Assembly: GCA_012295275.1 (NCBI GenBank)
Contig: CM022665.1
Location: forward strand, 327,471-391,470
From: Chrysomallon squamiferum
Lineage: Eukaryota; Mollusca; Gastropoda; Neomphalida; Peltospiridae
DNA: 64,000 bases
Direction: 5' to 3'
In this document: in pieces, positions 26,407 to 50,001 of the stretch
How positions within the stretch are numbered: position 1 is the stretch's first letter
Layout of the letters: every line of letters begins with the position of its first letter
Position numbers and translations under genes: made by a program
The notes under the pieces: generated by a model
What the model was told of the DNA's origin: nothing
Databases searched by the model: none
Seen by the model: the letters and a program-made list of their open reading frames with translations, nothing else

Positions 26407-26438
<32 letters not shown>

Positions 26439-27900: not shown

Positions 27901-27967
27901 GATTTTTCCGTATCAGTGGTTCAATGGAAAGTCGCCATGTTTATGTCACTTTGTACACGTAATTTGA

Positions 27968-28401: not shown

Positions 28402-28579
28402 CGTTTGTGTCGCCCATTCTTGAATATCGTTTTCAGTAACAGTTAAAAGTTCATAGACTACGTGCTAAAACAAATATTTAAAATTATTAGTTTTGTGTTG
28501 CTTTATATTATAAAATATTTCCGTGTTTTAGTTTCTTTCTTTTTTTTTTTTCTTCTTCTTCTTTTTTTGGTTTCTTTAT

Positions 28580-28627
28580 GAAACTGAAACTTGTATGAAC
28601 GAAAATATTTCCGAGAATGTTCGAGAA
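28580..28627 (+). promoter_or_regulatory. Composite ISRE + STAT-type + heat-shock-type element
   Basis: Within 48 bases are GAAACTGAAACT (ISRE core, 28,580-28,591), TTCCGAGAA (TTCN3GAA, STAT/GAS consensus, 28,609-28,617) and GAATGTTCGAGAA (three alternating nGAAn units, HSF consensus, 28,615-28,627, overlapping the STAT site). It is the last cassette before the candidate start exon and the A/B exon array that leads to the intact IAP. No TATA box is evident. Motif identities are seen; factor binding is inferred. Confidence 0.5.
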
Positions 28628-28984
28628 GACTTAACTGCCTGCAGTGGTAGTAGCTAGATTTGAATAAACATTAGTAGTTCTGTAAAAGATAAATTTGTTA
28701 GTTTAATGATTTCTTAACTGTGATGAAAGAACACAACATTTTGTTTGATGTTTTAATTGATTGACTGAATGTTATCAGATTAAACTTTGGTAAAGTTCAT
28801 ACTTACATCAGACTACATGTATAGTACATGTTATTTTATTTCTTGAGGTCAGTAATCAATATAGAATCAGTTTGTCTACAAATTTAACACGTTCCAGTGT
28901 TTTATTAATAATTATACTCAAATTAAATTTATTTAAATTTAGAAACTGCTTAAATTGTCAAAGTAAAAGACACAGTCAGAAAGA

Positions 28985-29021
28985 ATGAAGAGAAACTTGA
29001 ATCTATTTATAGAGCAATCTG
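28985..29021 (+). CDS. Candidate start exon of the array/IAP gene
   Basis: ATG followed by 11 sense codons (MKRNLNLFIEQS) and one base before a GTGCGT donor at 29,022, so it ends in phase 1, the phase needed by every exon A and B and by the IAP repeat exon. The 5' part of the exon may begin after TTTAG at 28,942. It lies 360 bases downstream of the composite regulatory element. A related stretch at about 62,070 has an ATG without a matching donor, so conservation is weak. Confidence 0.35.
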
Positions 29022-30035
29022 GTGCGTAACAGAGATTTTCCTTGTATTAACCTTTGTTACTTCAGTTTTATGTCTGATAACATCACACTTTATTTATTTG
29101 TATCTGGGATAATACGCATTAAATGTAAATGAGCAGTACAATCATGAAAACGTAGATTATCAGAAGTATTAATTTCTGCGTGGTGTTTTAGAAAACAAAA
29201 TATCGTCTCCAGATCACGAGATGAATCATCAATATATTAAGACATTTCATAAGCGTGGAGTTTCATTAATGTCCTGGTTTCGTTTTCAAATAGTTTTTCT
29301 GTCTGTGATTTTGTGCATTTTTATAATCTGAATGACTACTACATGAATATAATAGGTGAAAAAGAATTATTTTCTTACAAACGTTAGCTGATATTAATTT
29401 TACACATTTTATGTTTATCGATATTTCTGAAATTACAAATTGGAAGATGATGAAAGAACACAGACAGTAGTAAAAAATAAAAATATCGTTATATGATTAA
29501 ACCTTGTTTGTTTAGTGTCATTCTTTATTTAACATGTGACGCTCGTTTTATTAAAACTTAATTTGCATGGTCACCCTCCGTAATGATGTCTGACTTGAGG
29601 GTATTCGTAAAGTTCTTGTTGTTTTTTTGTTTTTTTCTAATCTTTATTTTTATTTATTTGTTTGTTTATTTATTACTGTTATTATTATTAAAAGGAGCAG
29701 TATTTAATAGATCCGTAAGCTCTGTTTCTGACAGTTATTTGCAGATACGGAGAAACACTTTTTGCATTTTGTATTGTAAGTGAAACGCGTACTCATCTGA
29801 GGAAAACGCTGAAATTTCTATCTCGATGTCGTCTGTGGATGCTTAGAACAATTCATCCTTACAACTCAAAATCTCGGTTCTAGATTGGCGAGAAAAATCA
29901 CGAATATAACTGATCCTTTTAAAAAAAATTAGTGAAAACTGCATCGCCTATATCTAATGTAAAATCATAACAGTGTGACGAACCACACTTCACAGATGTT
30001 AATTTTAAAATGTTTGTTTTGATTTCATCTTACAG

Positions 30036-30728
30036 AACTTACAGAGCTAAGTGATAAGCAGGTGAAGATGATAAAGAGGATCTTACATCCTTTAGGTACT
30101 TTTACACCTTCTTGAACGTAACTTATAAAGTCACTGTCATATACTTAATCTACTGATGTTTTGTTTGGTAAACAACCTGTTTTTAAGTATTTATTTCTTA
30201 ATCAATACCTGTAAAAAAAAAGAAATAATTGCCTGTACATCCAATTATTTAGTACGGCTATAAAATATTGATATATAGTAATTTCAGTAGCTGATAGAGC
30301 CCTATCCTGATTTTACCTCACTCATGCCTTTCAATGAATATACGAACATCAACATCTATTATTTATTTTAATTAGTGAACGTTTGTCAGTGATTTTGAAT
30401 TATTGCAAGTCAGACAAATGTCTCCTTTATTTCCTGGTTTTAAAAATTATCCCAAAAGATAAGCGTGGAGTTTCATTAATGTCCTGGTTTCGTTTTCAAA
30501 TAGTTTTTCTGTCTGTGATTTTGTGCATTTTTTATAATCTGAATGACTACTACATGAATATAATAGGTGAAAAAATTATTTTCTTACAAACGTTAGCTGA
30601 TATTAATTTTACACATTTTATGTTTATCCATATTTCTGAAATTACAGGTTTAACCTATGAAACAACGGAAATCATGTGTCACAAAACTTGTTCAACTTTA
30701 AGTGAAGTTGAAAACAGCACAATAAAAG
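30036..30728 (+). CDS. Array unit 0: exon A + exon B
   Basis: Exon A is 30,036-30,095 (60 bases; ELTELSDKQVKMIKRILHPL, donor GTACTT). Exon B is 30,648-30,728 (81 bases; GLTYETTEIMCHKTC, then SEVENSTIK at its end, donor GTATGT). Both are open and phase 1-1, adding 47 residues together. Exon B is also read through from its upstream intron as a long open frame, which I consider incidental. Confidence 0.6.
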
Positions 30729-31383
30729 GTATGTACAATTTAATTTGTTTTGTTTTTTTTACAATTTTTTAAATTAAATATTTTTGGAAGATGATGAAAG
30801 AACACAGACAGTAGTAAAAAATAAAAATATCGTTATATGATTAAACCTTGTTTGTTTAGTGTCATTCTTTATGTAACATGTGACGCTCGTTTTATTAAAA
30901 CGTAATTTGCATGGTCACCCTCCGTAATGATGTCTGACTTGAGGGTATTCGTAAAGTTCTTGTTGTTTTTGTGTTTTTTTCTAATCTTTATTTTTATTTA
31001 TTTGTTTGTTTGTTTATTTATTACTGTTATTATTATTAAAAGGAGCAGTATTTAATAGATCCGTAAGCTCTGTTTCTGACAGTTATTTGCAGATACGGAG
31101 AAACACTTTTTGCATTTTGTATTGTAAGTGAAACGCGTACTCATCTGAGGAAAACACTGAAATTTCTATCTCGATGTCGTCTGTGGATGCTTAGAACAAT
31201 TCGTCCTTACAACTCAAAATCTCGGTTCTAGATTGGCGAGAAAAATCACGAATATAACTGATCCTTTTAAACAAAATTAGTGAAAACTGCATCGCCTATA
31301 TCTAATGTAAAATCATAACAGTGTGACGAACCACACTTCACAGATGTTAATTTTAAAATGTTTGTTTTGATTTCATCTTACAG

Positions 31384-32080
31384 AACTTACAGAGCTAAGT
31401 GATAAGCAGGTGAAGATCATAAAGAGTAACATTCAGTCATCAGGTACTTTTACACCTTCTTGAACGTAACTTATAAAGTCACTGTCATATACTTAATCTA
31501 CTGATGTTTTGTTTGGTAAACAACCTGTTTTTAAGTATTTATTTCTTAATCAATACCTGGAAAGCAAAGAAATAATTGCCTGTACATCCAATTATTTAGT
31601 ACGGCTATAAAATATTGATATATAGTAATTTCAGTAGCTGATAGAGCCCTATCCTGATTTTACCTCACTCATGCCTTTCAATGAATATACGAACATCAAC
31701 ATCTATTATTTATTTTAATTAGTGAACGTTTGTCAGTGATTTTGAATTATTGCAAGTCAGACAAATGTCTCCTTTATTTCCTGGTTTTAAAAATTATCCC
31801 AAAAGATAAGCGTGGAGTTTCATTAATGTCCTGGTTTCGTTTTCAAATAGTTTTTCTGTCTGTGATTTTGTGCATTTTTATAATCTGAATGACTACTACA
31901 TGAATATAATAGGTGAAAAAAAGAATTATTTTCTTACAAACGTTAGCTGATATTAATTTTACACATTTTATGTTTATCCATATTTCTGAAATTACAGGTT
32001 TAACCTATGAAACAACGGAAATCATGTGTCACAAAAAACTTGTTCAACTTTAAGTGAAGTTGAAAACAGCACAATAAAAG
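31384..32080 (+). CDS. Array unit 1: exon A + frameshifted exon B
   Basis: Exon A is 31,384-31,443 and ends SNIQSS, like the old copy at 12,698 (KNIESS), unlike the other array units (R-I-x-x-x-L). Exon B is 31,998-32,080, 83 bases, because an A run after TGTCAC is two bases longer; its inclusion would break the frame. It may be skipped, or the assembly may be wrong at the homopolymer. Confidence 0.5.
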
Positions 32081-32732
32081 GTATGTACAATTTAATTTGT
32101 TTTGTTTTTTTTTTACAATTTTTAAATTAAATATTTTTGGAAGATGATGAAAGAACACAGACAGTAGTAAAAAAAAAAAATATCGTTATATGATTAAACC
32201 TTGTTTGTTTAGTGTCATTCTTTATGTAACATGTGACGCTCGTTTTATTAAAACGTAATTTGCATGGTCACCCTCCGTAATGATGTCTGACTTGAGGGTA
32301 TTCGTAAAGTTCTTGTTGTTTTTGTGTTTTTTTCTAATCTTTATTTTTATTTATTTGTTTGTTTATTTATTACTGTTATTATTATTAAAAGGGAGCAGTA
32401 TTTAATAGATCCGTAAGCTCTGTTTCTGACAGTTATTTGCAGATACGGAGAAACACTTTTGCATTTTGTATTGAAAGTGAAACGCGTACTCATCTAAGGA
32501 AAACGCTGAAATTTCTATCTCGATGTCGTCTGTGGATGCTTAGAACAATTCATCCTTACAACTCAAAATCTCGGTTCTAGATTGGCGAGAAAAATCACGA
32601 ATATAACTGATCCTTTTAAACAAAATTAGTGAAAACTGCATCGCCTATATCTAATGTAAAATCATAACAGTGTGACGAACCACACTTCACAGATGTTAAT
32701 TTTAAAATGTTTGTTTTGATTTCATCTTACAG

Positions 32733-33423
32733 AACTTACAGAGCTAAGTGATAAGCAGGTGAAGATGATAAAGAGGATCTTTCATGCTTTACGTACTTTT
32801 ACACCTTCTTGAACGTAACTTATAAAGTCACTGTCATATACTTAATCTACTGATGTTTTGTTTGGTAAACAACCTGTTTTTAAGTATTTATTTCTTAATC
32901 AATACCTGGAAAGCAAAGAAATAATTGCCTGTACATCCAATTATTTAGTACGGCTATAAAATATTGATATATAGTAATTTCAGTAGCTGATAGAGCCCTA
33001 TCCTGATTTTACCTCACTCATGCCTTTCAATGAATATACGAACATCAACATCTATTATTTATTTTAATTAGTGAACGTTTGTCAGTGATTTCGAATTATT
33101 GCAAGTCAGACAAATGTCTCCTTTATTTCCTGGTTTTAAAAATTATACCAAAAGATAAGCGTGGAGTTTCATTAATGTCCTGGTTTCGTTTTCAAATAGT
33201 TTTTCTGTCTGTGATTTTGTGCATTTTTATAATCTGAATGACTACTACATGAATATAATAGGTGAAAAAATTATTTTCTTACAAACGTTAGCTGATATTA
33301 ATTTTACACATTTTATGTTTATCCATATTTCTGAAATTACAGGTTTAACCTATGAAACAACGGAAATCATGTGTCACAAAACTTGTTCAACTTTAAGTGA
33401 AGTTGAAAACAGCACAATAAAAG
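32733..33423 (+). CDS. Array unit 2: exon A + exon B
   Basis: Exon A is 32,733-32,792, ending in C rather than G before GTACTT (split codon CGT or similar). Exon B is 33,343-33,423, 81 bases, open, matching unit 0. Confidence 0.6.
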
Positions 33424-34075
33424 GTATGTACAATTTAATTTGTTTTGTTTTTTTTACAATTTTTTAAATTAAATATTTTTGGAAGATGATGAAAGAACAC
33501 AGACAGTAGTAAAAAATAAAAATATCGTTATATGATTAAACCTTGTTTGTTTAGTGTCATTCTTTATGTAACATGTGACGCTCGTTTTATTAAAACGTAA
33601 TTTGCATGGTCACCCTCCGTAATGATGTCTGACTTGAGGGTATTCGTAAAGTTCTTGTTGTTTTTGTGTTTTTTTCTAATCTTTATTTTTATTTATTTGT
33701 TTGTTTATTTATTACTGTTATTATTATTAAAAGGAGCAGTATTTAATAGATCCGTAAGCTCTGTTTCTGACAGTTATTTGCAGATACGGAGAAACACTTT
33801 TTGCATTTTGTATTGAAAGTGAAACGCGTACTCATCTAAGGAAAACGCTGAAATTTCTATCTCGATGTCGTCTGTGGATGCTTAGAACAATTCATCCTTA
33901 CAACTCAAAATCTCGGTTCTAGATTGGCGAGAAAAATCACGAATATAACTGATCCTTTTAAACAAAATTAGTGAAAACTGCATCGCCTATATCTAATGTA
34001 AAATCATAACAGTGTGACGAACCACACTTCACAGATGTTAATTTTAAAATGTTTGTTTTTGATTTCATCTTACAG

Positions 34076-34763
34076 AACTTACAGAGCTAAGTGATAAGCA
34101 GGTGAAGATGATAAAGAGGATCTTTCATGCTTTACGTACTTTTACACCTTCTTGAACGTAACTTATAAAGTCACTGTCATATACTTAATCTACTGATGTT
34201 TTGTTTGGTAAACAACCTGTTTTTAAGTATTTATTTCTTAATCAATACCTGGAAAGCAAAGAAATAATTGCCTGTACATCCAATTATTTAGTACGGCTAT
34301 AAAATATTGATATATAGTAATTTCAGTAGCTGATAGAGCCCTATCCTGATTTTACCTCCTCATGCCTTTCAATGAATATACGAACATCAACATCTATTAT
34401 TTATTTTAATTAGTGAACGTTTGTCAGTGATTTCGAATTATTGCAAGTCAGACAAATGTCTCCTTTATTTCCTGGTTTTAAAAATTATCCCAAAAGATAA
34501 GCGTGGAGTTTCATTAATGTCCTGGTTTCGTTTTCAAATAGTTTTTCTGTCTGTGATTTTGTGCATTTTTATAATCTGAATGACTACTACATGAATATAA
34601 TAGGTGAAAAATTATTTTCTTACAAACGTTAGCTGATATTAATTTTACACATTTTATGTTTTCCATATTTCTGAAATTACAGGTTTAACCTATGAAACAA
34701 CGGAAATCATGGCACAAAAACTTGTTCCACTTTAAAGTGAAGTTGAAAACAGCACAATAAAAG
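34076..34763 (+). CDS. Array unit 3: exon A + broken exon B
   Basis: Exon A is 34,076-34,135, open. Exon B is 34,683-34,763, 81 bases long, but compensating indels put a TAA in frame after about 17 codons. The unit is intermediate between the two subtypes (ATGGCACA as in units 4-11, length as in units 0-2). Confidence 0.5.
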
Positions 34764-35413
34764 GTATGTACAATTTAATTTGTTTTGTTTTTTTTACAAT
34801 TTTTTAAATTAAATATTTTTGGAAGATGATGAAAGAACACAGACAGTAGTAAAAAATAAAAATATCTTATTACATGATTAAACCTTGTTTGTTTAGTGTC
34901 ATTCTTTATGTAACACGTCACGCTCGTTTTATTAAAACGTAATTTGCATAGTCCCTCCGTAATGATGTCTGACTTGAGGGTATTCGTAAAGTTCTTGTTG
35001 TTTTTGTGTTTTTTTCTAATCTTTATTTTTATTTATTTGTTTGTTTATTTATTACTGTTATTATTATTAAATGGGCACCATTTAATATATCCGTAAGCTC
35101 TGTTTCTGACAGTCATTTGCAGATACGGAGAAACGCTTTTTGCATTTTGTATTGTAAGTGAAACGGGTACTCATCTAAGGAAAACGCTGAAATTTGTACC
35201 TCGATGTCGTCTGTCGATTCTTAGAACAACTCATCCTCACAACTCATAATCTAGATTTTAGATTGGCGAGATAAATCATGAATATAATTGATCCTTTTAA
35301 ACAAAATTACTGAAAACTGCATCGCCTATATCTAATGTAAAATCATAACAGTGTGACGAACCACACTTCACAGATGTTAATTTTTAAATGTTTGTTTTAA
35401 TTTCATCTTACAG

Positions 35414-36079
35414 AACTTAAAGAGCTAAGTGATAAGCAGGTGAAGATGATAAAGAGGATCTTTCAGCCTTTAGGTACTTTTACACGTTCTTGAACCTAAC
35501 TTATCAAGTGATTGTCATGTATTTAATCTTCTGTACTTTTATGTGGTAAAGAACTCTGTTTTATTCTTTATCAACAATACCTGTGAAGCAAAGAAATAAT
35601 TGCCTATACATTCACTTATTTAGTACGCAATATAATATTGATATATCGTAATTTCAGTAGCTCACAGGACCCTACCCTGATTTTACCTCACTCATACCTT
35701 GCAATTAATATACGAACGTCAACATCTATTGTTTATTTTAATTAGTGAATGTTTGTCAGTGATTTGGAATTATTGCAAGTGAGACAAATTTCCCTTCGTT
35801 TCCCAGTTTTAAGAATTATCCCAAAAGATAAGCGTGGAGTTTCATTAATGTCCTGGTTTCGTTTTCAAATAGTTTATCTGTCTGTGACTTTGTGCATTTT
35901 TATAATCTGAATGACAACTACATGAATATATTACATGAATAATTACTTTCTTATAAACGTTAGCTGATGTTAATTTTACACATTTTATGTTTTCTGTATT
36001 TCTGAAATTACAGGTTTAACCTATGAACTAACGGAAATCATGGCACAGAAAACTTGTCCCACATTAAGCACAATAAAAG
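35414..36079 (+). CDS. Array unit 4: exon A + short exon B
   Basis: Exon A is 35,414-35,473 (ELKELSDKQVKMIKRIFQPL). Exon B is 36,014-36,079, 66 bases (GLTYELTEIMAQK, then TCPTLSTIK); the 15-base loss relative to units 0-2 is in frame. This is the type unit of the recent subtype, encoding 42 residues. A third exon-like frame is at 35,807-35,910 (see findings). Confidence 0.6.
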
Positions 36080-36699
36080 GTATGTACAATTTAATTTATT
36101 TTGTTTTTACAATTTTGTAAATTTAGTAATTTTGGAAAGATGATGAAAGAACACAGAAAGTAGTAAAAAATAAATATATTATTACATGATTAAACCTTCT
36201 TAGATTAGAGTCATGCTTTATGTAACACGTCGCGCTCGTTTTATTAAAATCTAATTTGGGTAGTCCCCCTCCATAATGTCTGACTTGAGGGTATCCGTAA
36301 AGTTCTTGGTTTTTTGTGTTTTAATTGTTTGTTTGTTTATTATTGTTATTATTAAAATGGGCACCATTTGATATATCCGTATGCTGTTTTTCTGACAGTT
36401 ATTTGCAGATACGGAGAAACGCTTTTTGCATTTTGTATTGTAAGTGAAACGGGTACTCATCTAAGGAAAACGCTGAAATTTCTACCTCGATGTCGTCTGT
36501 CGATTCTTACAACAACTCATCCTCACAACTCATAATCTAGATTTTAGATTGGCGAGATAAATCATGAATATAATTGATCCTTTTAAACAAAATTACTGAA
36601 AACTGCATCGCCTATATCTAATGTAAAATCATAACAGTGTGACGAACCACACTTCACAGATGTTAATTTTTAAATGTTTGTTTTAATTTCATCTTACAG

Positions 36700-37365
36700 A
36701 ACTTAAAGAGCTAAGTGATAAGCAGGTGAAGATGATAAAGAGGATCTTTCAGCCTTTAGGTACTTTTACACGTTATTGAACCTAACTTATCAAGTGATTG
36801 TCATGTATTTAATCTTCTGTACTTTTATGTGGTAAAGAACTCTGTTTTATTCTTTATCAACAATACCTGTGAAGCAAAGAAATAATTGCCTATACATTCA
36901 CTTATTTAGTACGCAATATAATATTGATATATCGTAATTTCAGTAGCTCACAGGACCCTACCCTGATTTTACCTCACTCATACCTTGCAATTAATATACG
37001 AACGTCAACATCTATTGTTTATTTTAATTAGTGAATGTTTGTCAGTGATTTGGAATTATTGCAAGTGAGACAAATTTCCCCTTCGTTTCCCAGTTGTAAG
37101 AATTATCCCAAAAGATAAGCGTGGAGTTTCATTAATGTCCTGGTTTCGTTTTCAAATAGTTTATCTGTCTGTGACTTTGTGCATTTTATAATCTGAATGA
37201 CAACTACATGAATATATTACATGAATAATTACTTTCTTATAAACGTTAGCTGATGTTAATTTTACACATTTTATGTTTTCTGTATTTCTGAAATTACAGG
37301 TTTAACCTATGAACTAACGGAAATCATGGCACAGAAAACTTGTCCCACATTAAGCACAATAAAAG
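36700..37365 (+). CDS. Array unit 5: exon A + short exon B
   Basis: Exons 36,700-36,759 and 37,300-37,365; both open and identical in sequence to unit 4. Confidence 0.6.
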
Positions 37366-37985
37366 GTATGTACAATTTAATTTATTTTGTTTTTACAATT
37401 TTGTAAATTTAGTAATTTTGGAAAGATGATGAAAGAACACAGAAAGTAGTAAAAAATAAATATATTATTACATGATTAAACCTTCTTAGATTAGAGTCAT
37501 GCTTTATGTAACACGTCACGCTCGTTTTATTAAAATCTAATTTGGGTAGTCCCCCTCCATAATGTCTGACTTGAGGGTATCCGTAAAGTTCTTGGTTTTT
37601 TGTGTTTTAATTGTTTGTTTGTTTATTATTGTTATTATTAAAATGGGCACTATTTCATATATCCGTAAGCTGTGTTTCTGACTATTATTTGCAGATACGA
37701 AGAAACGCTTTTTGCATTTTGTATTCTAAGTGAAACGGGTACTCATCTAAGGAAAACGCTGAAATTTCTACCTCGATGTCGTCTGTCGATTCTTAGAACA
37801 ACTCATCCTCACAACTCATAATCTAGATTTCAGATGGGCGAGATAAATCATGAATATAATTGATCCTTTTAAACAAAATTACTGAAAACTGCATCGCCTA
37901 TATCTAATGTAAAATCATAACAGTGTGACGAACCACACTTCACAGATGTCAATTTTTAAATGTTTGTTTTAATTTCATCTTACAG

Positions 37986-38652
37986 AACTTAAAGAGCTAA
38001 GTGATAAGCAGGTGAAGATGATAAAGAGGATCTTTCAGCCTTTAGGTACTTTTACACGTTATTGAACCTAACTTATCAAGTGATTGTCATGTATTTAATC
38101 TTCTGTACTTTTATGTGGTAAAGAACTCTGTTTTATTCTTTATCAACAATACCTGTGAAGCAAAGAAATAATTGCCTATACATTCACTTATTTAGTACGC
38201 AATATAATATTGATATATCGTAATTTCAGTAGCTCACAGGACCCTACCCTGATTTTACCTCACTCATACCTTGCAATTAATATACGAACGTCAACATCTA
38301 TTGTTTATTTTAATTAGTGAATGTTTGTCAGTGATTTGGAATTATTGCAAGTGAGACAAATTTCCCCTTCGTTTCCCAGTTTTAAGAATTATCCCAAAAG
38401 ATAAGCGTGGAGTTTCATTAATGTCCTGGTTTCGTTTTCAAATAGTTTATCTGTCTGTGACTTTGTGCATTTTTATAATCTGAATGACAACTACATGAAT
38501 ATATTACATGAATAATTACTTTCTTATAAACGTTAGCTGATGTTCATTTTACACATTTTATGTTTTCTGTATTTCTGAAATTACAGGTTTAACCTATGAA
38601 CTAACGGAAATCATGGCACAGAAAACTTGTCCCACATTAAGCACAATAAAAG
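37986..38652 (+). CDS. Array unit 6: exon A + short exon B
   Basis: Exons 37,986-38,045 and 38,587-38,652; open, identical to unit 4 at the protein level. Confidence 0.6.
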
Positions 38653-39272
38653 GTATGTACAATTTAATTTATTTTTGTTTTTACAATTTTGTAAATTTAG
38701 TAATTTTGGAAAGATGATGAAAGAACACAGAAAGTAGTAAAAAATAAATATATTATTACATGATTAAACCTTCTTAGATTAGAGTCATGCTTTATGTAAC
38801 ACGTCGCGCTCGTTTTATTAAAATCTAATTTGGGTAGTCCCCCTCCATAATGTCTGACTTGAGGGTATCCGTAAAGTTCTTGGTTTTTTGTGTTTTAATT
38901 GTTTGTTTGTTTATTATTGTTATTATTAAAATGGGCACCATTTGATATATCCGTATGCTGTTTTTCTGACAGTTATTTGCAGATACGAAGAAACGCTTTT
39001 GCATTTTGTATTGTAAGTGAAACGGGTACTCATCTAAGGAAAACGCTGAAATTTCTACCTCGATGTCGTCTGTCGATTCTTACAACAACTCATCCTCACA
39101 ACTCATAATCTAGATTTTAGATTGGCGAGATAAATCATGAATATAATTGATCCTTTTAAACAAAATTACTGAAAACTGCATCGCCTATATCTAATGTAAA
39201 ATCATAACAGTGTGACGAACCACACTTCACAGATGTCAATTTTTAAATGTTTGTTTTAATTTCATCTTACAG

Positions 39273-39939
39273 AACTTAAAGAGCTAAGTGATAAGCAGGT
39301 GAAGATGATAAAGAGGATCTTTCAGCCTTTAGGTACTTTTACACGTTCGTGAACCTAACTTACCAAGCGATTGTCATATATTTAATCTTCTGTACGTTTA
39401 TGTGGTAAAGAACTCTGTTTTATTCTTTATCAACAATACCTGTGAAGCAAAGAAGTAATTGCCTATACATTCACTTATTTAGTATGCAATATAATATTGA
39501 TATATCGTAATTTCAGTAGCTCACACGAGCCTACCCTGATTTTACCTCACTCATACCTTTCAATTAATATACGAACGTCAACATCTATTGTTCATTTTAA
39601 TTAGTGAATGTTTGTCAGTGATTTGGAATTATTGCAAGTGAGACAAATTTCCCCTTCGTTTCCCAGTTTTAAGAATTATCCCAAAAGATAAGCGTGGAGT
39701 TTCATTAATGTCCTGGTTTCGTTTTCAAATAGTTTATCTGTCTGTGACTTTGTGCATTTTTATAATCTGAATGACAACTACATGAATATATTACATGAAT
39801 AATTACTTTCTTATAAACGTTAGCTGATGTTCATTTTACACATTTTATGTTTTCTGTATTTCTGAAATTACAGGTTTAACCTATGAACTAACGGAAATCA
39901 TGGCACAGAAAACTTGTCCCACATTAAGCACAATAAAAG
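39273..39939 (+). CDS. Array unit 7: exon A + short exon B
   Basis: Exons 39,273-39,332 and 39,874-39,939; open. Intron variants (CGTTCGTGAACC after the donor) are shared with units 8 and 9, showing block-wise copying. Confidence 0.6.
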
Positions 39940-40560
39940 GTATGTACAATTTAATTTATTTTTGTTTTTACAATTTTGTAAATTTAGTGATTTTGGAAAG
40001 ATGATGAAAGAACACAGAAAGTAGTAAAAAATAAATATATTATTACATGATTAAACCTTCTTAGATTAGAGTCATGCTTTATGTAACACGTCGCGCTCGT
40101 TTTATTAAAATCTAATTTGGGTAGTCCCCCTCCATAATGTCTGACTTGAGGGTATCCGTAAAGTTCTTGGTTTTTTGTGTTTTAATTGTTTGTTTGTTTA
40201 TTATTGTTATTATTAAAATGGGCACCATTTGATATATCCGTATGCTGTTTTTCTGACAGTTATTTGCAGATACGGAGAAACGCTTTTTGCATTTTGTATT
40301 GTAAGTGAAACGGGTACTCATCTAAGGAAAACGCTGAAATTTCTACCTCGATGTCGTCTGTCGATTCTTAGAACAACTCATCCTCACAACTCATAATCTA
40401 GATTTTAGATTGGCGAGATAAATCATGAATATAATTGATCCTTTTAAACAAAATTACTGAAAACTGCATCGCCTATATCTAATGTAAAATCATAACAGTG
40501 TGACGAACCACACTTCACAGATGTCAATTTTTAAATGTTTGTTTTAATTTCATCTTACAG

Positions 40561-41229
40561 AACTTAAAGAGCTAAGTGATAAGCAGGTGAAGATGATAAA
40601 GAGGATCTTTCAGCCTTTAGGTACTTTTACACGTTCGTGAACCTAACTTATCAAGCGATTGTCATATATTTAATCTTCTGTACTTTTATGTGGTAAAGAA
40701 CTCTGTTTTATTCTTTATCAACAATACCTGTGAAGCAAAAAGAAATAATTGCCTATACATTCACTTATTTAGTATGCAATATAATATTGATATATCGTAA
40801 TTTCAGTAGCTCACACGAGCCTACCCTGATTTTACCTCACTCATACCTTTCAATTAATATACGAACGTCAACATCTATTGTTTATTTTAATTAGTGAATG
40901 TTTGTCAGTGATTTGGAATTATTGCAAGTGAGACAAATTTCCCCTTCGTTTCCCAGTTTTAAGAATTATCCCAAAAGATAAGCGTGGAGTTTCATTAATG
41001 TCCTGGTTTCGTTTTCAAATAGTTTATCTGTCTGTGACTTTGTGCATTTTTATAATCTGAATGACAACTACATGAATATATTACATGAATAATTACTTTC
41101 TTATAAACGTTAGCTGATGTTAATTTTACACATTTTATGTTTTCTGTATTTCTGAAATTACAGGTTTAACCTATGAACTAACGGAAATCATGGCACAGAA
41201 AACTTGTCCCACATTAAGCACAATAAAAG
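40561..41229 (+). CDS. Array unit 8: exon A + short exon B
   Basis: Exons 40,561-40,620 and 41,164-41,229; open. Confidence 0.6.
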
Positions 41230-41849
41230 GTATGTACAATTTAATTTATTTTTGTTTTTACAATTTTGTAAATTTAGTAATTTTGGAAAGATGATGAAAG
41301 AACACAGAAAGTAGTAAAAAATAAATATATTATTACATGATTAAACCTTCTTAGATTAGAGTCATGCTTTATGTAACACGTCACGCTCGTTTTATTAAAA
41401 TCTAATTTGGGTAGTCCCCCTCCATAATGTCTGACTTGAGGGTATCCGTAAAGTTCTTGGTTTTTTGTGTTTTAATTGTTTGTTTGTTTATTATTGTTAT
41501 TATTAAAATGGGCACCATTTGATATATCCGTATGCTGTTTTTCTGACAGTTATTTGCAGATACGGAGAAACGCTTTTTGCATTTTGTATTGTAAGTGAAA
41601 CGGGTACTCATCTAAGGAAAACGCTGAAATTTCTACCTCGATGTCGTCTGTCGATTCTTAGAACAACTCATCCTCACAACTCATAATCTAGATTTTAGAT
41701 TGGCGAGATAAATCATGAATATAATTGATCCTTTTAAACAAAATTACTGAAAACTGCATCGCCTATATCTAATGTAAAATCATAACAGTGTGACGAACCA
41801 CACTTCACAGATGTCAATTTTTAAATGTTTGTTTAATTTCATCTTACAG

Positions 41850-42516
41850 AACTTAAAGAGCTAAGTGATAAGCAGGTGAAGATGATAAAGAGGATCTTTC
41901 AGCCTTTAGGTACTTTTACACGTTCGTGAACCTAACTTACCAAGCGATTGTCATATATTTAATCTTCTGTACGTTTATGTGGTAAAGAACTCTGTTTTAT
42001 TCTTTATCAACAATACCTGTGAAGCAAAGAAATAATTGCCTATACATTCACTTATTTAGTACGCAATATAATATTGATATATCGTAATTTCAGTAGCTCA
42101 CACGAGCCTACCCTGATTTTACCTCACTCATACCTTTCAATTAATATACGAACGTCAACATCTATTGTTCATTTTAATTAGTGAATGTTTGTCAGTGATT
42201 TGGAATTATTGCAAGTGAGACAAATTTCCCCTTCGTTTCCCAGTTTTAAGAATTATCCCAAAAGATAAGCGTGGAGTTTCATTAATGTCCTGGTTTCGTT
42301 TTCAAATAGTTTATCTGTCTGTGACTTTGTGCATTTTTATAATCTGAATGACAACTACATGAATATATTACATGAATAATTACTTTCTTATAAACGTTAG
42401 CTGATGTTAATTTTACACATTTTATGTTTTCTGTATTTCTGAAATTACAGGTTTAACCTATGAACTAACGGAAATCATGGCACAGAAAACTTGTCCCACA
42501 TTAAGCACAATAAAAG
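41850..42516 (+). CDS. Array unit 9: exon A + short exon B
   Basis: Exons 41,850-41,909 and 42,451-42,516; open. One T is missing in the intron before exon A. Confidence 0.6.
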
Positions 42517-43136
42517 GTATGTACAATTTAATTTATTTTGTTTTTACAATTTTGTAAATTTAGTAATTTTGGAAAGATGATGAAAGAACACAGAAAGTAG
42601 TAAAAAATAAATATATTATTACATGATTAAACCTTCTTAGATTAGAGTCATGCTTTATGTAACACGTCACGCTCGTTTTATTAAAATCTAATTTGGGTAG
42701 TCCCCCTCCATAATGTCTGACTTGAGGGTATCCGTAAAGTTCTTGGTTTTTTGTGTTTTAATTGTTTGTTTGTTTATTATTGTTATTATTAAAATGGGCA
42801 CCATTTAATATATCCGTATGCTGTTTTTCTGAAAGTTATTTGCAGATACGGAGAAACGCTTTTTCCATTTTGTATTGTAAGTGAAACGGGTACTCATCTA
42901 AGGAAAACGCTGAAATTTCTACCTCGATGTCGTCTGTCGATTCTTACAACAACTCATCCTCACAACTCATAATCTAGATTTTAGATGGGCGAGATAAATC
43001 ATGAATATAATTGATCCTTTTAAACAAAATTACTGAAAACTGCATCGCCTATATCTAATGTAAAATCATAACAGTGTGACGAACCACACTTCACAGATGT
43101 CAATTTTTAAATGTTTGTTTTAATTTCATCTTACAG

Positions 43137-43803
43137 AACTTAAAGAGCTAAGTGATAAGCAGGTGAAGATGATAAAGAGGATCTTTCAGCCTTTAGGTAC
43201 TTTTACACGTTCTTGAACCTAACTTATCAAGTGATTGTCATGTATTTAATCTTCTGTACTTTTATGTGGTAAAGAACTCTGTTTTATTCTTTATCAACAA
43301 TACCTGTGAAGCAAAGAAATAATTGCCTATACATTCACTTATTTAGTACGCAATATAATATTGATATATCGTAATTTCAGTAGCTCACACGAGCCTACCC
43401 TGATTTTACCTCACTCATACCTTTCAATTAATATACGAACGTCAACATCTATTGTTTATTTTAATTAGTGAATGTTTGTCAGTGATTTGGAATTATTGCA
43501 AGTGAGACAAATTTCCCCTTCGTTTCCCAGTTTTAAGAATTATCCCAAAAGATAAGCGTGGAGTTTCATTAATGTCCTGGTTTCGTTTTCAAATAGTTTA
43601 TCTGTCTGTGACTTTGTGCATTTTTATAATCTGAATGACAACTACATGAATATATTACATGAATAATTACTTTCTTATAAACGTTAGCTGATGTTAATTT
43701 TACACATTTTATGTTTTCTGTATTTCTGAAATTACAGGTTTAACCTATGAACTAACGGAAATCATGGCACAGAAAACTTGTCCCACATTAAGCACAATAA
43801 AAG
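43137..43803 (+). CDS. Array unit 10: exon A + short exon B
   Basis: Exons 43,137-43,196 and 43,738-43,803; open. Confidence 0.6.
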
Positions 43804-44423
43804 GTATGTACAATTTAATTTATTTTGTTTTTACAATTTTGTAAATTTAGTAATTTTGGAAAGATGATGAAAGAACACAGAAAGTAGTAAAAAATAAATA
43901 TATTATTACATGATTAAACCTTCTTAGATTAGAGTCATGCTTTATGTTACACGTCACGCTCGTTTTATTAAAACCTAATTTGGGTAGTCCCCCTCCATAA
44001 TGTCTGACTTGAGGGTATCCGTAAAGTTCTTGGTTTTTTGTGTTTTAATTGTTTGTTTGTTTATTATTGTTATTATTAAAATGGGCACCATTTAATATAT
44101 CCGTATGCTGTTTTTCTGAAAGTTATTTGCAGATACGGAGAAACGCTTTTTCCATTTTGTATTGTAAGTGAAACGCGTACTCGTCTAAGGAAAACGCTGA
44201 AATTTCTACCTCGATGTCGTCTGTCGATTCTTAGAACAACTCATCCTCACAACTCATAATCTAGATTTTAGATGGGCGAGATAAATCATGAATATAATTG
44301 ATCCTTTTAAACAAAATTACTGAAAACTGCATCGCCTATATCTAATGTAAAATCATAACAGTGTGACGAACCACACTTCACAGATGTCAATTTTTAAATG
44401 TTTGTTTTAATTTCATCTTACAG

Positions 44424-45077
44424 AACTTAAAGAGCTAAGTGATAAGCAGGTGAAGATGATAAAGAGGATCTTTCAGCCTTTAGGTACTTTTACACGTTCT
44501 TGAACCTAACTTATCAAGTGATTGTCATGAATTTAATCTTCTGTACTTTTATGTGGTAAAGAACTCTGTTTTATTCTTTATCAACAATACCTGTGAAGCA
44601 AAGAAGTAATTCACTTATTTAGTACGCAATAAAATATTGACATATCGTAATTTCAGTGTCTCACAGGACCCTACCCTGATTTTACTACACTCATACCTTT
44701 CAATTAATATACAAACGTCAACATCTATTGTTTATTTTAATTAGTGAATGTTTGTCAGTGATTTGGGATTATTGCAAGTGAGACAAATTTCCCCTTCGTT
44801 TCCCAGTTTTAAGAATTATCCCAAAAGATAAGCGTGGAGTTTCATTAATGTCCTGGTTTCGTTTTCAAATAGTTTATCTGTCTGTGAGTGTGCATTTTTA
44901 TAATCTGAATGACAACTACATAAATATATTACATTAATAATTACTTTCTCATAAACGTTAGCTGATGTTAATTTTACACATTTTATGTTTTCTGTATTTC
45001 TGAAATTACAGGTTTAACCTATGAACTAACGGAAATCATGGCACAGAAAACTTGTCCCACATTAAGCACAATAAAAG
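44424..45077 (+). CDS. Array unit 11 (last): exon A + short exon B
   Basis: Exons 44,424-44,483 and 45,012-45,077; open. The unit is the most divergent of the recent subtype in its introns. Its exon B donor at 45,078 ends in phase 1 and the next acceptor in phase is that of the IAP repeat exon at 45,938, about 860 bases on. Confidence 0.6.
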
Positions 45078-45330
45078 GTATGTACAATTTAATTTATTTT
45101 GTTTTTACAATTTTGTAAATTTAGTAATTTTGGAAAGATGATGAAAGAACACAGAAAGTAGTAAAAAATAAATATATTATTACATGATTAAACCTTCTTA
45201 GATTAGAGTCATGCTTTATGTAACACGTCACGCTCGTTTTATTAAAACCTAATTTGGGTATTCGTCATCATCCGTAATGACTTTTGACTTGAGGGTTTTC
45301 GTAAATTTGTTGTTGTTTTTCTAAACTTTA

Positions 45331-45937
45331 TATATATATATATATATGTATATTTTTATATTTAATTTTTTTTTTAATTTCTGTTCGTTCAATAATTTTG
45401 TATCTACGATTAAAGATCACAGTGTTTGTATTTGAAATATTATTTTTTAATAAAATGATTATAATGAGAATAAACTTTGTTAATTTTGTTTCATGTCTTC
45501 GACAATTTATTTATTAATAAGAAGATAATTATCTAAGTCTTACTTTGGATCTTGAACAGTTTTATTTTTTGCCTCTCGTCTATTTTCTGCTTAACTGACT
45601 ATTCCTGACGTTCTCATGTACTCTGATGAATGCTACTTCTTTAGAAGAGAAATAATTTTTCTATCTTCTTGTTGTAAAAAATCATTTAAAACATAAACGC
45701 TTAATTTTCTATCTGAAAATGATCTGCGAATGAAAAATGTTTTCAAGATTGTAAATGAAATTTAAAATGAACATCCATCTTAAAATGAACTTCCTTACCA
45801 CTGATATTCAATGATGTTTTCCAGGGAATAAATCATATAAAATGAAAACAAAACTCTCAACATGATTAACCTATAGTTTGTAAGTCTATCAGACACACAG
45901 AATATTTTAAATTTTACATAAATGTTTTATCTTATAG
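45331..45937 (+). other. Presumed intron between array and IAP
   Basis: AT-rich, no open frame of interest. The last 130 bases match the sequence ahead of the repeat exon in the broken copy (about 85-225). Confidence 0.5.
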
Positions 45938-48262
45938 ACACGTCAGCAATGAGAAGTGATGAGAGAGAACAGCTGAGAAGTGATGAGAGAGAACAGTTGA
46001 GAAGTGATGAGAGAGAACAGAGTAGAAGTGATGAGAGAGAACAGTTGAGAAGTGATGAGACAGAACAGTGGAGAAGTGATCAAAGAGAACAGCTGAGAAG
46101 TGATGAGAGAGAACAGTTGAGAAGTGATGAGACAGAACAACTGAGAAGTGATGAGATAGAACAGCTGAGAAGTGATGCGATAGAACAGTTGAGAAGTGAT
46201 GAGACAGAACAGTTGAGAAGTGATGAGACAGAACAGTTGAGAAGTGATGAGACAGAACAGGTGAGAAATGATGAGACAGAACAGCTGAGAAGTGATGAGA
46301 TAGAACAGCTGAGAAGTGATGAAATAGAACAGTTGAGAAGTGATGAGACAGAACAGTTGAGAAGTGATGAGACAGAACAGTGGAGAAGTGATGAGACAGA
46401 ACAGTTGAGAAGTGATGAGACAGAACAGTTGAGAAGTGATGAGACAGAACAGTGGAGAAGTGATGAGACAGAACAGTTGAGAAGTGATGAGAGAGAACAG
46501 TTGAGAAGTGATGAGACAGAACAGTGGAGAAGTGATGAGACAGAACAGTTGAGAAGTGATGAGACAGAACAGTGGAGAAGTGATGAGACAAAACAGTGGA
46601 GAAGTGATGAGACAGAACATTTGAGAAGTGATGTGAGAGAACAGTTGAGAAGTGATGAGACAGAACAGTGGAGAAGTAATGAGACAGAACAGTTGAAAAG
46701 TGATGAGAGAGAACAGCTGAGAAGTGATGTGAGAGAACAATTGAGAAGTGATGAGAAAGAACAGCTGAGAAGTGATGAGAGAGAACAGTTGAGAAGTTAT
46801 GAGACAGAACAGTTGAGAGGTGATGAGACAGAACAGTGGAGAAGTGATGAGACAGAACAGCTGAGAAGTGATGAGACAAAACAGTGGAGAGGTGATGAGA
46901 CAAAACAGTGGAGAGGTGATGAGACAGAACAGTGGAGAAGTGATGAGAGAGAACAGCTGAGAAGTGATGAGAGAGAACAGTTGAGAAGTGATGAGAGAGA
47001 ACAGAGTAGAAGTGATGAGAGAGAACAGTTGAGAAGTGATGAGACAGAACAGTGGAGAAGTGATCAAAGAGAACAGCTGAGAAGTGATGAGAGAGAACAG
47101 TTGAGAAGTGATGAGACAGAACAACTGAGAAGTGATGAGATAGAACAGCTGAGAAGTGATGCGATAGAACAGTTGAGAAGTGATGAGACAGAACAGTTGA
47201 GAAGTGATGAGACAGAACAGTTGAGAAGTGATGAGACAGAACAGGTGAGAAATGATGAGACAGAACAGCTGAGAAGTGATGAGATAGAACAGCTGAGAAG
47301 TGATGAAATAGAACAGTTGAGAAGTGATGAGACAGAACAGTTGAGAAGTGATGAGACAGAACAGTGGAGAAGTGATGAGACAGAACAGTTGAGAAGTGAT
47401 GAGACAGAACAGTTGAGAAGTGATGAGACAGAACAGTGGAGAAGTGATGAGACAGAACAGTTGAGAAGTGATGAGAGAGAACAGTTGAGAAGTGATGAGA
47501 CAGAACAGTGGAGAAGTGATGAGACAGAACAGTTGAGAAGTGATGAGACAGAACAGTGGAGAAGTGATGAGACAAAACAGTGGAGAAGTGATGAGACAGA
47601 ACATTTGAGAAGTGATGTGAGAGAACAGTTGAGAAGTGATGAGACAGAACAGTGGAGAAGTAATGAGACAGAACAGTTGAAAAGTGATGAGAGAGAACAG
47701 CTGAGAAGTGATGTGAGAGAACAATTGAGAAGTGATGAGAAAGAACAGCTGAGAAGTGATGAGAGAGAACAGTTGAGAAGTTATGAGACAGAACAGTTGA
47801 GAGGTGATGAGACAGAACAGTGGAGAAGTGATGAGACAGAACAGCTGAGAAGTGATGAGACAAAACAGTGGAGAGGTGATGAGACAAAACAGTGGAGAGG
47901 TGATGAGACAGAACAGTGGAGAAGTGATGAGAGAGAACAGTTGAGAAGTGATGAGACAAAACAGTGGAGAGGTGATGAGACAAAACAGTGGAGAGGTGAT
48001 GAGACAGAACAGTGGAGAAGTGATGTTGCCTCTAATGATTCTCATCAAAGTTCTTCACAGCTCAGTCTCAGTAATTTACCAATCCTTCAGCTGTCCGGTT
48101 TTATGTCTGGAAGCTCCTCTACATCAGCCCCGACACTGCATGCACTACGTCACAGCGACTACTTCAACGTACAACGAAGTATTTCGTCTTTTGAACACCG
48201 ATGGGCACATCCTGACATCCGGTCTCTGAGAGAGCTGGCAGAAGCCGGTTTCTTCATCTCTG
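45938..48262 (+). CDS. IAP exon 1: octapeptide stalk and first half of BIR
   Basis: 2325 bases, phase 1 at both ends. After DTSAM come 86 uninterrupted copies of an R-S-D-E-x-E-Q-x octapeptide (45,952-48,015), then about 45 Ser/Thr/His-rich residues and the BIR start ([19 protein letters not shown], then EAGFFISG). The intron splits the BIR just before its first zinc cysteines. The stalk is highly charged and, with an 8-residue period, does not fit a heptad coiled coil; likely an extended or helical spacer. Confidence 0.85.
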
Positions 48263-50001
48263 GTTAGTGTTACTGCTGTTTAATTAGAAATCTTCACATT
48301 TTAGTAATCATTTGCAAATCTTCTTCGACTGCTCTATATTTTTTATCATTTACATTTTAAGTCTTTTACATTTTAATGTTCATTTGCTAATAAGACTTGA
48401 AATTACTGACATTTTACCTGACGTTTTAATATTGATATAGTCATTTCAGAATTTTGAGACTGATTTTGAATTTGGGTATTTTGACAGTCATCTGAAATCT
48501 CTGAAAGATCGATTGCAACATCATACATTAAGTTTTATGTATATGTATGTATTTCTATATGTGTGTATTTCTATGTGAGTGTCCATCTATGTGTGTATGT
48601 GTTTGTGTGTCAGTATTAGCAGAGTTTTGGTGGATGTATGTGTCACAGGAAATGTATACAGTTATGAACAAGTACATTCATGTATAAACAGGCAATTCAC
48701 GTGATAGCACGTCCTGCTTTTACTGCGGAGGAGGACTTAGAAATTGGAAGCAGGGAGATAACCCTTACGTGGAACACGCCAGATGGTTTCCACGATGTGA
48801 TTTCATCAGACAGGTGAAGGGAGACAGTTTTGTTGATTTAGTTCAAGAAATGAATGAAAATGAAGAGGAGGTAACTAGTTGACATTTTTAATTTTACCAT
48901 GAAATTATTAAACTTGTGTAACTACATATATTTGTGTTTTCACAAGGATTTGAACAGTTTCTTAAATTTAATTTATATTTTGTAATCTTTATTTTCTCTT
49001 TCCTTGGATATTTTGTTTATTATTTGCTTATTTAATTAGTTAAGTTAGTTTTAAAATTTCGGTTATCTTATGTTTTTGTGTCATTATTATTATTACAATT
49101 ATTATTTATGTTCTTTTTTTAGTACTACTACTGCTGGTACTATTGTCATTATTGTTGCTGTTGTTGTTGTTATTATATCATTAATCTATTTTAGAGCAAC
49201 TGTAACACAGATATTAATCTACATGGAGAAACGAGTGACGAATTTATCGAAACAACAAGAAACAGAGAACTTGGAGCTTCAGGTATATTGTTGTTTTATT
49301 TCATTCATTTTATTATTTTCATTTTATAAGTATTGTTGTTATTTCTTCTTTTTTTTTTTTTTTTTTGCTGTTGATATTAGTATTGTTATTAATGTTATTG
49401 TTACAATTATCATGACTACTCGTTTTGTTTTGGTTGTTGTTGTTATTATTATTATTATTATTATTACTACAATTACATTTTATTCATTTATTTTTGTATT
49501 ATTATTTATTTATTTATTACTGATGTTGTTATTATTGTTATTGTTGTTGTCATTGATGTTAGCTGTAATGAAATTATTATTATTATTATTATTATCATTA
49601 TTATTATTACTGTTGTTGTTGTAACATGATATATTTAAGAAAGAAAGAAATACATAAACATTTTTTGTATATTCGTCTACAAATTATTTGTTTCAAAGGT
49701 TATGTGTAATAAACATTTCAAGTTATTTGATTTATTTTAAACTGTCCTTTGTTACAAAATACACACATTATTTAACGTATAAGAATTATATTGTTCTTAA
49801 TACGTTATCTGATATTTAACAGATTCCTTGCCGGGTGGTAATGAGGAACTCATCTGCAAAGTTTGTCTTGAAAAGAAGGTCAGAATAGTTTTCCTGCCCT
49901 GCGGTCATCTTTGTTGCTGTGAAGATTGTGCGCCCAGACTGCGAATATGTCCACTCTGTAGAGAGATAATCCTAGCCACTGTGCGAGCTTTCTTGTGTTA
50001 A
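45938..50001 (+). CDS. Inhibitor of apoptosis protein, BIR + RING, apparently intact 3' half
   Basis: Four exons (45,938-48,262; 48,692-48,870; 49,195-49,282; 49,823-50,001) join with matching phases (1, 0, 1) and AG/GT boundaries into one open frame of 923 residues ending in TAA. Order: 86 charged octapeptides, a Ser/Thr-rich stretch, one BIR domain, a linker and a C-terminal RING. BIR domains of this family bind caspases or IAP-binding motifs; the RING makes it an E3 ubiquitin ligase, acting in the cytosol in apoptosis or immune signalling. The first exon opens in phase 1, so an upstream coding exon is required: the A/B micro-exons on the same strand have exactly that phase. An ATG at 45,922 lies in the intron; another at 45,949 opens the repeat and could be an internal start. 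Single-BIR architecture resembles BIRC7-like proteins, with an unusual repeat stalk. Confidence 0.8.
45952..48015 (+). repeat. 24-bp octapeptide array, 86 units, with 984-bp higher-order repeat
   Basis: Unit AGAAGTGATGAGACAGAACA plus four bases. A landmark variant (unit ending EQS, at 46,021) recurs at 47,005, exactly 984 bases or 41 units later, and the variants between them recur in the same order. So the array consists of two near-identical 41-unit blocks plus a few end units. All copies stay in frame. Very long open frames on the opposite strand (about 680-700 codons) arise because the unit lacks stops there. Confidence 0.95.
48692..48870 (+). CDS. IAP exon 2: zinc-binding half of BIR
   Basis: Acceptor AG at 48,690-48,691, donor GTAACT at 48,871; phase 1 in, 0 out. 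Encodes [11 protein letters not shown], then [14 protein letters not shown], the canonical C-x2-C-x16-H-x6-C BIR zinc site with the conserved G, W and D-x-P. It ends in an acidic stretch (MNENEEE). Confidence 0.9.
49195..49282 (+). CDS. IAP exon 3: BIR-RING linker
   Basis: 88 bases, phase 0 in and 1 out, between TTTTAG and GTATAT. Encodes [17 protein letters not shown], then a [10 protein letters not shown] tail. Homologues of its end occur at about 1810-1872, 7820-7882 and 22,400-22,464, always followed by the same donor and T-rich intron. Confidence 0.75.
49823..50001 (+). CDS. IAP exon 4: RING finger and stop
   Basis: Acceptor AG at 49,821-49,822, phase 1. Encodes [19 protein letters not shown], then [13 protein letters not shown], then CPLCREI and ATVRAFLC. 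Eight C3HC4 ligands are present, and the tail is the same as in the first copy. Differences from the copy at 2675 are mostly conservative. Confidence 0.9.

What the first reader, a model, noticed from the sequence alone, without database searches (positions are those of the whole stretch)
28985..50001. Candidate IAP gene fed by an array of 24 frame-neutral micro-exons
Seen: 12 exon A and 12 exon B copies on the same strand as an intact IAP 3' half, every one bounded by AG/GT, and all but one 60, 66 or 81 bases long, phase 1 at both ends. The IAP repeat exon at 45,938 also opens in phase 1 and lacks its own start, and a candidate start exon at 28,985 ends in phase 1. Known: symmetric-phase exons can be added or skipped without frame change. 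Inferred: one gene in which micro-exon number sets the length of an N-terminal helical module (up to about 470 residues from intact copies) before the stalk, BIR and RING. I know of no IAP with this build.
Basis: partly seen in the sequence, partly recalled or inferred. Interest (0 to 1): 0.9.

Follow-up and report, generated by a model that had tools for sequence, protein, structure and literature searches.

The report
Mollusc apoptosis gene with repeated exons
A mollusc gene related to cell-death inhibitors sits behind a row of 24 small, nearly interchangeable exons, and several sister genes in the same genome have similar rows, which suggests a protein family whose front end is built from a variable number of changing pieces.

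Summary
In detail: 12 A and 12 B small exons lie at 30,036-45,077, + strand, all with AG/GT ends; 22 of 24 are open and phase 1 at both ends. Two B copies are broken, so all 24 cannot be translated together.

The genome is a mollusc's. A search with the A-B unit listed 47 matches (40 of 82 candidates scored); 45 of 47, in 8 of 10 clusters, lie within 25 kb upstream of a BIR exon on the same strand. The proposed start exon has 10 matches, all same-strand and upstream of BIR exons. Neighbouring IAP genes carry other phase-1 small-exon families. Array exons show more amino-acid-changing than silent differences (140:20 pooled) relative to BIR/RING exons (116:55). With intact exons the model is one open frame.

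Best explanation: an IAP family with a modular, diversifying N-terminal region encoded by tandem symmetric exons, ahead of a long predicted-helical stalk, BIR and RING. Splicing and expression are not shown. "Micro-exon" is loose (60-81 bases). No such IAP appeared in the papers and proteins searched.

The parts
28985..29021 (+). candidate start exon (ATG, 37 bases, ends in phase 1; an in-frame stop lies upstream of the ATG)
   Evidence: 10 matches in the genome, all upstream of BIR exons on the same strand; ATG and phase-1 end kept in 4 of 6 copies read
29249..29943 (+). truncated first A-B unit whose B exon is deleted (the two flanks match B-flanking introns of paralogues)
   Evidence: 29,249-29,437 matches up to the B acceptor, 29,423-29,943 matches the intron after B
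30036..34763 (+). older part of the array: 4 A exons (60 bases) and 4 B exons (81, 83, 81, 81); B 31,998-32,080 frame-shifted, B 34,683-34,763 with a stop
35414..45077 (+). young part of the array: 8 A (60 bases) and 8 B (66 bases) exons, exon sequences identical, flanking introns 1.9% (around A) and 3.3% (around B) different
45938..48262 (+). large exon: 24-base ([12 protein letters not shown], 8-residue) repeats, then linker and first part of the BIR; phase 1 at both ends
   Evidence: the first 200 residues predicted as one helix, pLDDT 90.7, without an alignment
48692..48870 (+). exon with the zinc-binding second part of the BIR (phase 1 to 0)
49195..49282 (+). linker exon (phase 0 to 1)
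49823..50001 (+). RING exon with stop codon
12328..13002 (+). orphan B, A, B exons (the A has lost its first acceptor), about 16 kb upstream of the start exon; probably a relic

Best explanation
The window holds one member of a molluscan IAP gene family whose N-terminal coding region is a tandem array of small exons, phase 1 at both ends, between a short start exon and a large exon that opens in phase 1. Shown: the exons, their frame, their linkage to IAP genes at several loci, and an excess of amino-acid-changing over silent differences in them when exon families are pooled. Inferred: the exons are spliced into the IAP mRNA in varying number (broken copies skipped), giving a variable N-terminal region of 20-27-residue modules carried on a long helical stalk in front of BIR and RING. 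Inferred with less support: the array is the variable, selected part of the protein (a binding surface, for instance for a microbial or host partner that the RING then marks with ubiquitin), renewed by unequal exchange and conversion between arrays, while BIR and RING are more constrained.
For: DNA search of the genome with the A-B unit: 47 matches listed, 40 of 82 first-look candidates scored; 45 of 47 and 8 of 10 clusters lie within 25 kb upstream of a BIR exon on the same strand (1.4-21.6 kb); a random place and strand does so with chance 0.7% on C1 and 19% inside the BIR-rich stretch C1:40-812 kb (8 of 10 at 19% gives about 5e-5). Start exon: 10 of 10 matches (10 of 10 candidates scored) are upstream of BIR exons, same strand; two on C15 lie less than 1.8 kb from a BIR and one search lists no A-B match between, as if they were the gene without an array. 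Frame: the first acceptor-like site of the large exon is phase 1 in 7 of 7 loci with the 8-residue repeat. Other loci have other exon families, also phase 1 (84 of 91 sense triples in 12 stretches). Selection: N:S changes on minimum spanning trees, A 35:3, B of 81 bases 72.2:12.8, 78-base exon of locus G1 32.5:3.5, against BIR second part 55.5:28.5 and RING 60.3:26.7; pooled 140:20 against 116:55, Fisher p 2e-5, and p 0.002 or 8e-5 against expected N fractions of 0.776 or 0.745. The four older A copies differ 9.2% in the exon but 1.4% in flanking introns. Length differences among the intact exons aligned are 3, 12 and 15 bases. The joined model is one open frame of 1,405 residues with the 22 intact exons.
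Against: No RNA evidence was available. Loci are related by duplication, so linkage and frame are partly inherited, not independent. Of 92 A/B hits in the fetched DNA 17 are broken and 12 could not be parsed; five of the broken A copies have lost the acceptor and carry a stop. ATG is missing in 2 of 6 start-exon copies. Selection is not uniform: A exons differ equally at all three codon positions (0.182, 0.183, 0.185); over all 12 A copies of this gene the exon differs less than the introns (4.7% against 7.2%); in the G1 array the upstream intron is as diverged as the exon (15-22%), only the downstream one is not. Each family alone is weak (p 0.014 to 0.15) and the 63-base exon of G1 (1:0) was left out of the pool. 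The excess may partly reflect a few multi-base exchanges in the 3' half of exon A. BIR1 and the first BIR2 part also run near neutral (99:26, 124.2:39.8), so the contrast with all four C-terminal exons is smaller (p 3e-4). No credible Pfam, PDB or protein-database relative of the array peptide.
Confidence: 0.7

Rival explanations
1. Array exons are alternatives, of which one or a few are chosen per transcript (Dscam-like), so the array gives sequence choice and not length.
For: Broken copies stay in the array; exon peptides differ between copies in the older part and in the G1 array; tandem arrays of near-equal exons are the form that exclusive splicing uses (recalled; a Dscam paper, PMC3364881, was seen only as a listing with the start of its abstract).
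Against: The young half of this array (8 A, 8 B) encodes identical peptides, so choice among them changes nothing. The intact exons are multiples of three and phase 1, so nothing in the frame forces exclusion. I did not search for docking/selector RNA structures.
Confidence: 0.2
2. The arrays are decaying or never-used exon-like repeats that travel with IAP genes in segmental duplications; the IAPs start from elsewhere.
For: 17 of 92 hits broken and 12 unparsed; loci include recent duplicates (26,284-29,252 is 99% identical to C1:313,067-310,110); the window has relic copies at 12.3-13.0 kb, and the matches at C1:71,019 and C1:266,471 have no same-strand BIR downstream within 25 kb. Codon positions of A diverge equally.
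Against: 63 of 92 hits are intact in splice sites and frame; no stop in phase 1 in 12 A copies compared, against 46 and 27 stops in the other two phases (these 12 had been picked as intact, so this mainly shows which frame is coding); the length differences among intact exons are multiples of three; pooled amino-acid-changing differences exceed neutral expectation.
Confidence: 0.18
3. The array belongs to a separate gene that shares the neighbourhood, with its own end exon.
For: The large exon and 3' half could in principle have another promoter in the 860 bases between 45,077 and 45,938; this was not tested.
Against: The large exon opens in the array's phase in 7 of 7 loci; the start exon occurs near BIR exons even where no A-B match was listed. 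I noticed no other terminal coding exon between array and large exon but made no dedicated search.
Confidence: 0.05

Closest known systems
Inhibitor of apoptosis proteins (BIR-RING IAPs), expanded in bivalves (PMC7831173, PMC8917759; passages read)
   Same: BIR split over two exons (last part of one, first part of the next), a following exon between phase 0 and phase 1 (or 2) introns, RING in the last exon, tandem clusters on one chromosome: the hard clam paper describes this layout.
   Different: The passages read mention no array of small exons and no octapeptide stalk before the BIR. In hard clam most IAPs have an initial BIR over the first two exons; here up to 24 small exons and a repeat-bearing large exon come first.
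Schistosome micro-exon genes (MEG; PMC3961193, passages read)
   Same: Tandem, symmetric exons in multiples of three, thought to vary the protein by exon skipping.
   Different: MEG exons are 6-36 bases and belong to parasite genes whose products are found in secretions (PMC4350168, start of abstract); here 60-81 bases in a presumably intracellular E3 ligase.
Aphid bicycle genes (PMC9168663, passages read)
   Same: Many small internal exons of one phase; fast evolution with raised dN/dS.
   Different: Phase 2, not phase 1; unrelated proteins; no conserved BIR-RING end (last point recalled).
Dscam-hv exon clusters (recalled; PMC3364881 seen as a search listing only)
   Same: Tandem exon duplicates that can diversify one gene's product.
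   Different: Dscam uses mutually exclusive choice; exclusivity is not shown here and frame-neutral addition is possible.

Membership tests
IAP (BIR-RING) | BIR domain with CX2CX16HX6C zinc ligands | tested here: met
   Pfam BIR E 4.1e-13 on the second BIR exon; ligands C-2-C-16-H-6-C read directly in 48,692-48,870 (motif recalled)
IAP (BIR-RING) | C-terminal C3HC4 RING | tested here: met
   zf-C3HC4_3 E 3.8e-14, last exon 49,823-50,001
IAP (BIR-RING) | binds caspases or IBM peptides; ubiquitin ligase | not testable with these tools
   needs biochemistry
Schistosome-type micro-exon gene (MEG) | tandem symmetric exons in multiples of three | tested here: met
   22 of 24 exons open and symmetric, 23 of 24 a multiple of three
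Schistosome-type micro-exon gene (MEG) | exons of 6-36 bases | tested here: not met
   60, 66, 81 (one 83) bases; also above the 51-base limit given in the abstracts of PMC4317164 and PMC6600660 (listings)
Aphid bicycle gene | internal exons of phase 2 | tested here: not met
   phase 1
Dscam-type exclusive exon cluster | only one exon of a cluster per transcript | not testable with these tools
   no transcripts available
Transposable element | copies scattered without regard to a host gene | tested here: inconclusive
   45 of 47 listed A-B matches lie upstream of BIR exons on the same strand, which speaks against it, but only 40 of 82 candidates were scored

The most novel reading that the evidence does not exclude
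A cytosolic, germline-diversified recognition system: a molluscan IAP/E3-ligase family in which arrays of phase-1 exons, amplified and in part rewritten faster than their own introns, encode a variable sensing or target-binding region whose composition is further varied by splicing, coupled to BIR and RING effectors. This would be an invertebrate immune-type receptor repertoire built on apoptosis inhibitors.
Probability: 0.2. Interest if true: 0.92.

Novelty: new variant of a known kind. Interest (0 to 1): 0.7.

Why it matters
IAP genes are strongly expanded in molluscs, and why is an open question. A front end made of interchangeable, frame-neutral and diversifying exons would give a concrete, testable reason: these IAPs may meet a changing partner. 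It also gives a natural case of exon arrays growing and shrinking in one gene family, with young (identical) and old (diverged) arrays side by side in one genome.

Tried and rejected
Pfam hit Gp5_trimer_C on the large exon (3.6e-27): rejected, no stretch passes on its own and the sequence is a charged octad repeat predicted as a helix. Pfam rows for the joined array peptide: 24 unrelated families for one protein, a few even above their cut-off, most with no stretch passing alone; taken as an effect of repetition. Antisense phase-1 exons (11): one 48-base intron element copied with the array. The first B run of N:S held one copy read out of register; replaced. An out-of-frame peptide for the linker exon was used only to locate exons. 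Organism: the PF00379 search did not complete and was not repeated; PF14830 placed it in molluscs; species unknown. The parts of contig ends that I read showed no plain telomere repeat. An earlier count gave 91 hits and 11 unparsed; the printed table adds up to 92 and 12. An upstream control with IAP genes of other clades could not be fetched. A pattern search for the core of exon A, meant to check the capped list, did not complete.

Full report
WHAT IS THERE. The window is C1:327,471-391,470 of a 404.6 Mb genome in 22 contigs. A search with the molluscan haemocyanin beta-sandwich family gave 27 matches in one 70 kb cluster on C6, so the organism is a mollusc; the species is not known. Between 30,036 and 45,077 there are 12 A and 12 B exons in strict alternation on the + strand. 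Every one has AG before and GT after. A exons are 60 bases, B exons 81 (three), 83 (one) or 66 (eight). 22 of 24 are open in phase 1; B 31,998 is frame-shifted and B 34,683 has an in-frame stop. The eight young units have identical exons and introns that differ by 1.9% around A and 3.3% around B. Downstream come the large exon 45,938-48,262, the BIR exon 48,692-48,870, a linker exon 49,195-49,282 and the RING exon 49,823-50,001. Upstream is the start-exon candidate 28,985-29,021.

DOES THE FRAME WORK. Joined in silico, the start exon, the 22 intact exons and the four 3' exons read as one frame of 1,405 residues; it also stays open with no array exon, with A exons only and with only the 8 young pairs. 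With all 24 the frame ends at codon 98. So the number can vary freely, but two copies must be skipped or the protein is cut short.

DOES THE ARRAY BELONG TO THE IAP. I compared them with 66 of the 144 BIR places (those of C1 and C15, close repeats thinned; that search had scored 150 of 184 candidates). 45 of 47 lie within 25 kb upstream of a BIR exon on the same strand, at 1.4-21.6 kb. Grouped into 10 clusters, 8 do; the unit taken for each is 2.6-9.5 kb from the BIR. The two exceptions, C1:71,019 and C1:266,471, are single fragments. The eight clusters are at C1 88-90 kb, 253-264 kb, 297-310 kb, 357-373 kb (this window), 801-803 kb, 21.51 Mb, 21.53 Mb, and C15 23.12 Mb. The start-exon stretch (28,900-29,080) has 10 matches (10 of 10 candidates scored), each upstream of a BIR exon on the same strand, from less than 1.8 to 26 kb away. 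Two of them, on C15, lie less than 1.8 kb from a BIR exon and one search lists nothing between: this looks like the gene without an array, but their letters were not read. Of the six start-exon copies that I read, four keep the ATG and a phase-1 end (this gene, two at the C1:310 kb locus, one at C1:21.51 Mb) and two have lost the ATG.

OTHER ARRAYS. A strict scan for acceptor, 42-123 bases and donor in 12 IAP-upstream stretches gave 91 sense triples, 84 open in phase 1, 5 in phase 0, 3 in phase 2. One stretch (G7) gave none and G2 one. The families differ by locus: seven 78-base exons and three 63-base ones ahead of the gene at C1:154-160 kb (G1), 114- and 108-base exons ahead of the gene at C1:394-399 kb (G9), 51-base exons at C15. 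Sixteen antisense triples include 11 open in phase 1; all 11 are one intron element copied with the A-B arrays. In six stretches against control DNA the counts are 69 of 73 (of 102 pairs) in 120,106 bases against 2 of 12 (of 41 pairs) in 96,408 bases, both strands (some edges overlap). The large exon's first acceptor-like site is phase 1 in 7 of 7 loci that have the octapeptide repeat (G1, G2, G5, G7, G8, G9, L031); in three loci with another exon front (G3, L029, L032) the acceptor is not clear.

HOW IT EVOLVES. The 5' flank 26,284-29,252 is 99% identical to that of the inverted locus at C1:310-313 kb, while 48,010-50,574 matches C1:249,617-247,056 over its whole length at 86%; pieces of it match the C1:281-287 kb loci at 74-94%. 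The gene thus looks like a chimera of neighbours. It has only one BIR; neighbours carry a first BIR in the large exon, missing here between the repeats and the linker. Selection, both ways: aligned A copies (18 chosen) differ more in the 3' half of the exon (27%) than in the 5' half (10%) or flanking introns (17-23%), but equally at the three codon positions; B copies (15 chosen) differ more at positions 1 and 2 (24%, 22%) than at 3 (13%), with introns at 16% and 30%. In this gene the four older A copies differ 9.2% in the exon and 1.4% in introns, yet over all 12 copies it is 4.7% against 7.2%; in the G1 array the exon (20%) matches the upstream intron and exceeds the downstream one (2-3%). 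Counting changes along minimum spanning trees of distinct intact exons gives N:S of 35:3 (A of 60 bases, 11 of 29 distinct), 72.2:12.8 (B of 81 bases, 10 of 24), 32.5:3.5 (78-base exon, 6 of 7) and 1:0 (63-base exon, 2 of 3), against 55.5:28.5 (BIR second part), 60.3:26.7 (RING), 99:26 (BIR1) and 124.2:39.8 (BIR first part). Single tests on the first three are weak (p 0.014 to 0.15, by family and kappa). Pooled (140:20, without the 63-base exon) they exceed an expected N fraction of 0.776 (p 0.002) or 0.745 (p 8e-5) and differ from BIR+RING (p 2e-5) and from all four C-terminal exons (p 3e-4). Only intact copies of those exact lengths entered; the changes are not all independent, since the 3' half of A looks exchanged in blocks. 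I read this as good evidence for more constraint on BIR/RING than on the array and as suggestive evidence for diversifying selection on the array.

THE STALK. The large exon holds about 86 copies of a 24-base repeat. The first 200 residues fold, without an alignment, as a single helix with mean pLDDT 90.7. At the C1:287-293 kb locus the repeat runs to 247 copies but is split into two open frames.

WHAT IS KNOWN. Full-text searches for IAP together with mollusc, tandem, micro-exon, tandem exon duplication, gastropod, diversifying selection and variable N-terminus showed no paper on such an IAP among the rows listed (15 of 98, 10 of 66); most subscription journals and preprints are not held. The two bivalve IAP papers, read as passages only, describe the same BIR/RING exon layout but no such array. 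Protein searches found only distant IAPs (best 41% over 19%) for the BIR part of a neighbouring gene and nothing for the joined array peptide. Related gene designs are schistosome MEGs and aphid bicycle genes; each fails a defining feature (exon size, phase). At 60-81 bases these are small exons, not micro-exons in the strict sense (51 bases or fewer in the abstracts of PMC4317164 and PMC6600660, seen in listings).

VERDICT. Real, and part of an IAP gene family with good comparative support; mode of splicing and function unproven.

Noticed in passing
G000:C1:49,163,702-49,207,655 (outside the window): Near the other end of the same contig half-BIR exons recur about every 1.58 kb on one strand (seven from 49.1637 Mb and four from 49.2028 Mb), so exon amplification there seems to act on the BIR exon.
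   Followed up: no
window 1-3,000: Another IAP of this family with 24-base repeats, a first BIR (1,167) and a RING (2,665); no second BIR match was listed between them and the strict scan found no small exons upstream.
   Followed up: partly
window 60,904-64,000 and on to C1:398,890: First exons (114 bases, phase 1) of the next IAP gene, whose body lies beyond the window.
   Followed up: partly
window 12,328-13,002: Orphan B-A-B exons between two IAP genes; the A has lost its first acceptor.
   Followed up: partly
exon A, e.g. 30,036-30,044: Most A exons outside the young half begin AACTTACAG, a second acceptor 9 bases in; in C15 copies where the first acceptor is lost the scan finds 51-base exons starting there, so a 60/51 choice is possible.
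   Followed up: partly
45,938-48,262 and exon A: The 24-base stalk repeat resembles the start of exon A with its acceptor; the stalk may have arisen from an array exon. Seen by eye only.
   Followed up: no
G000:C1:287,569-293,494: Stalk repeat of 247 copies in a paralogue, about 5.9 kb, in two open frames of 561 and 1,660 codons.
   Followed up: no
window 53,444-53,978: Tandem repeat of period 60 rich in CTAACxCT-like words, of unknown nature.
   Followed up: no
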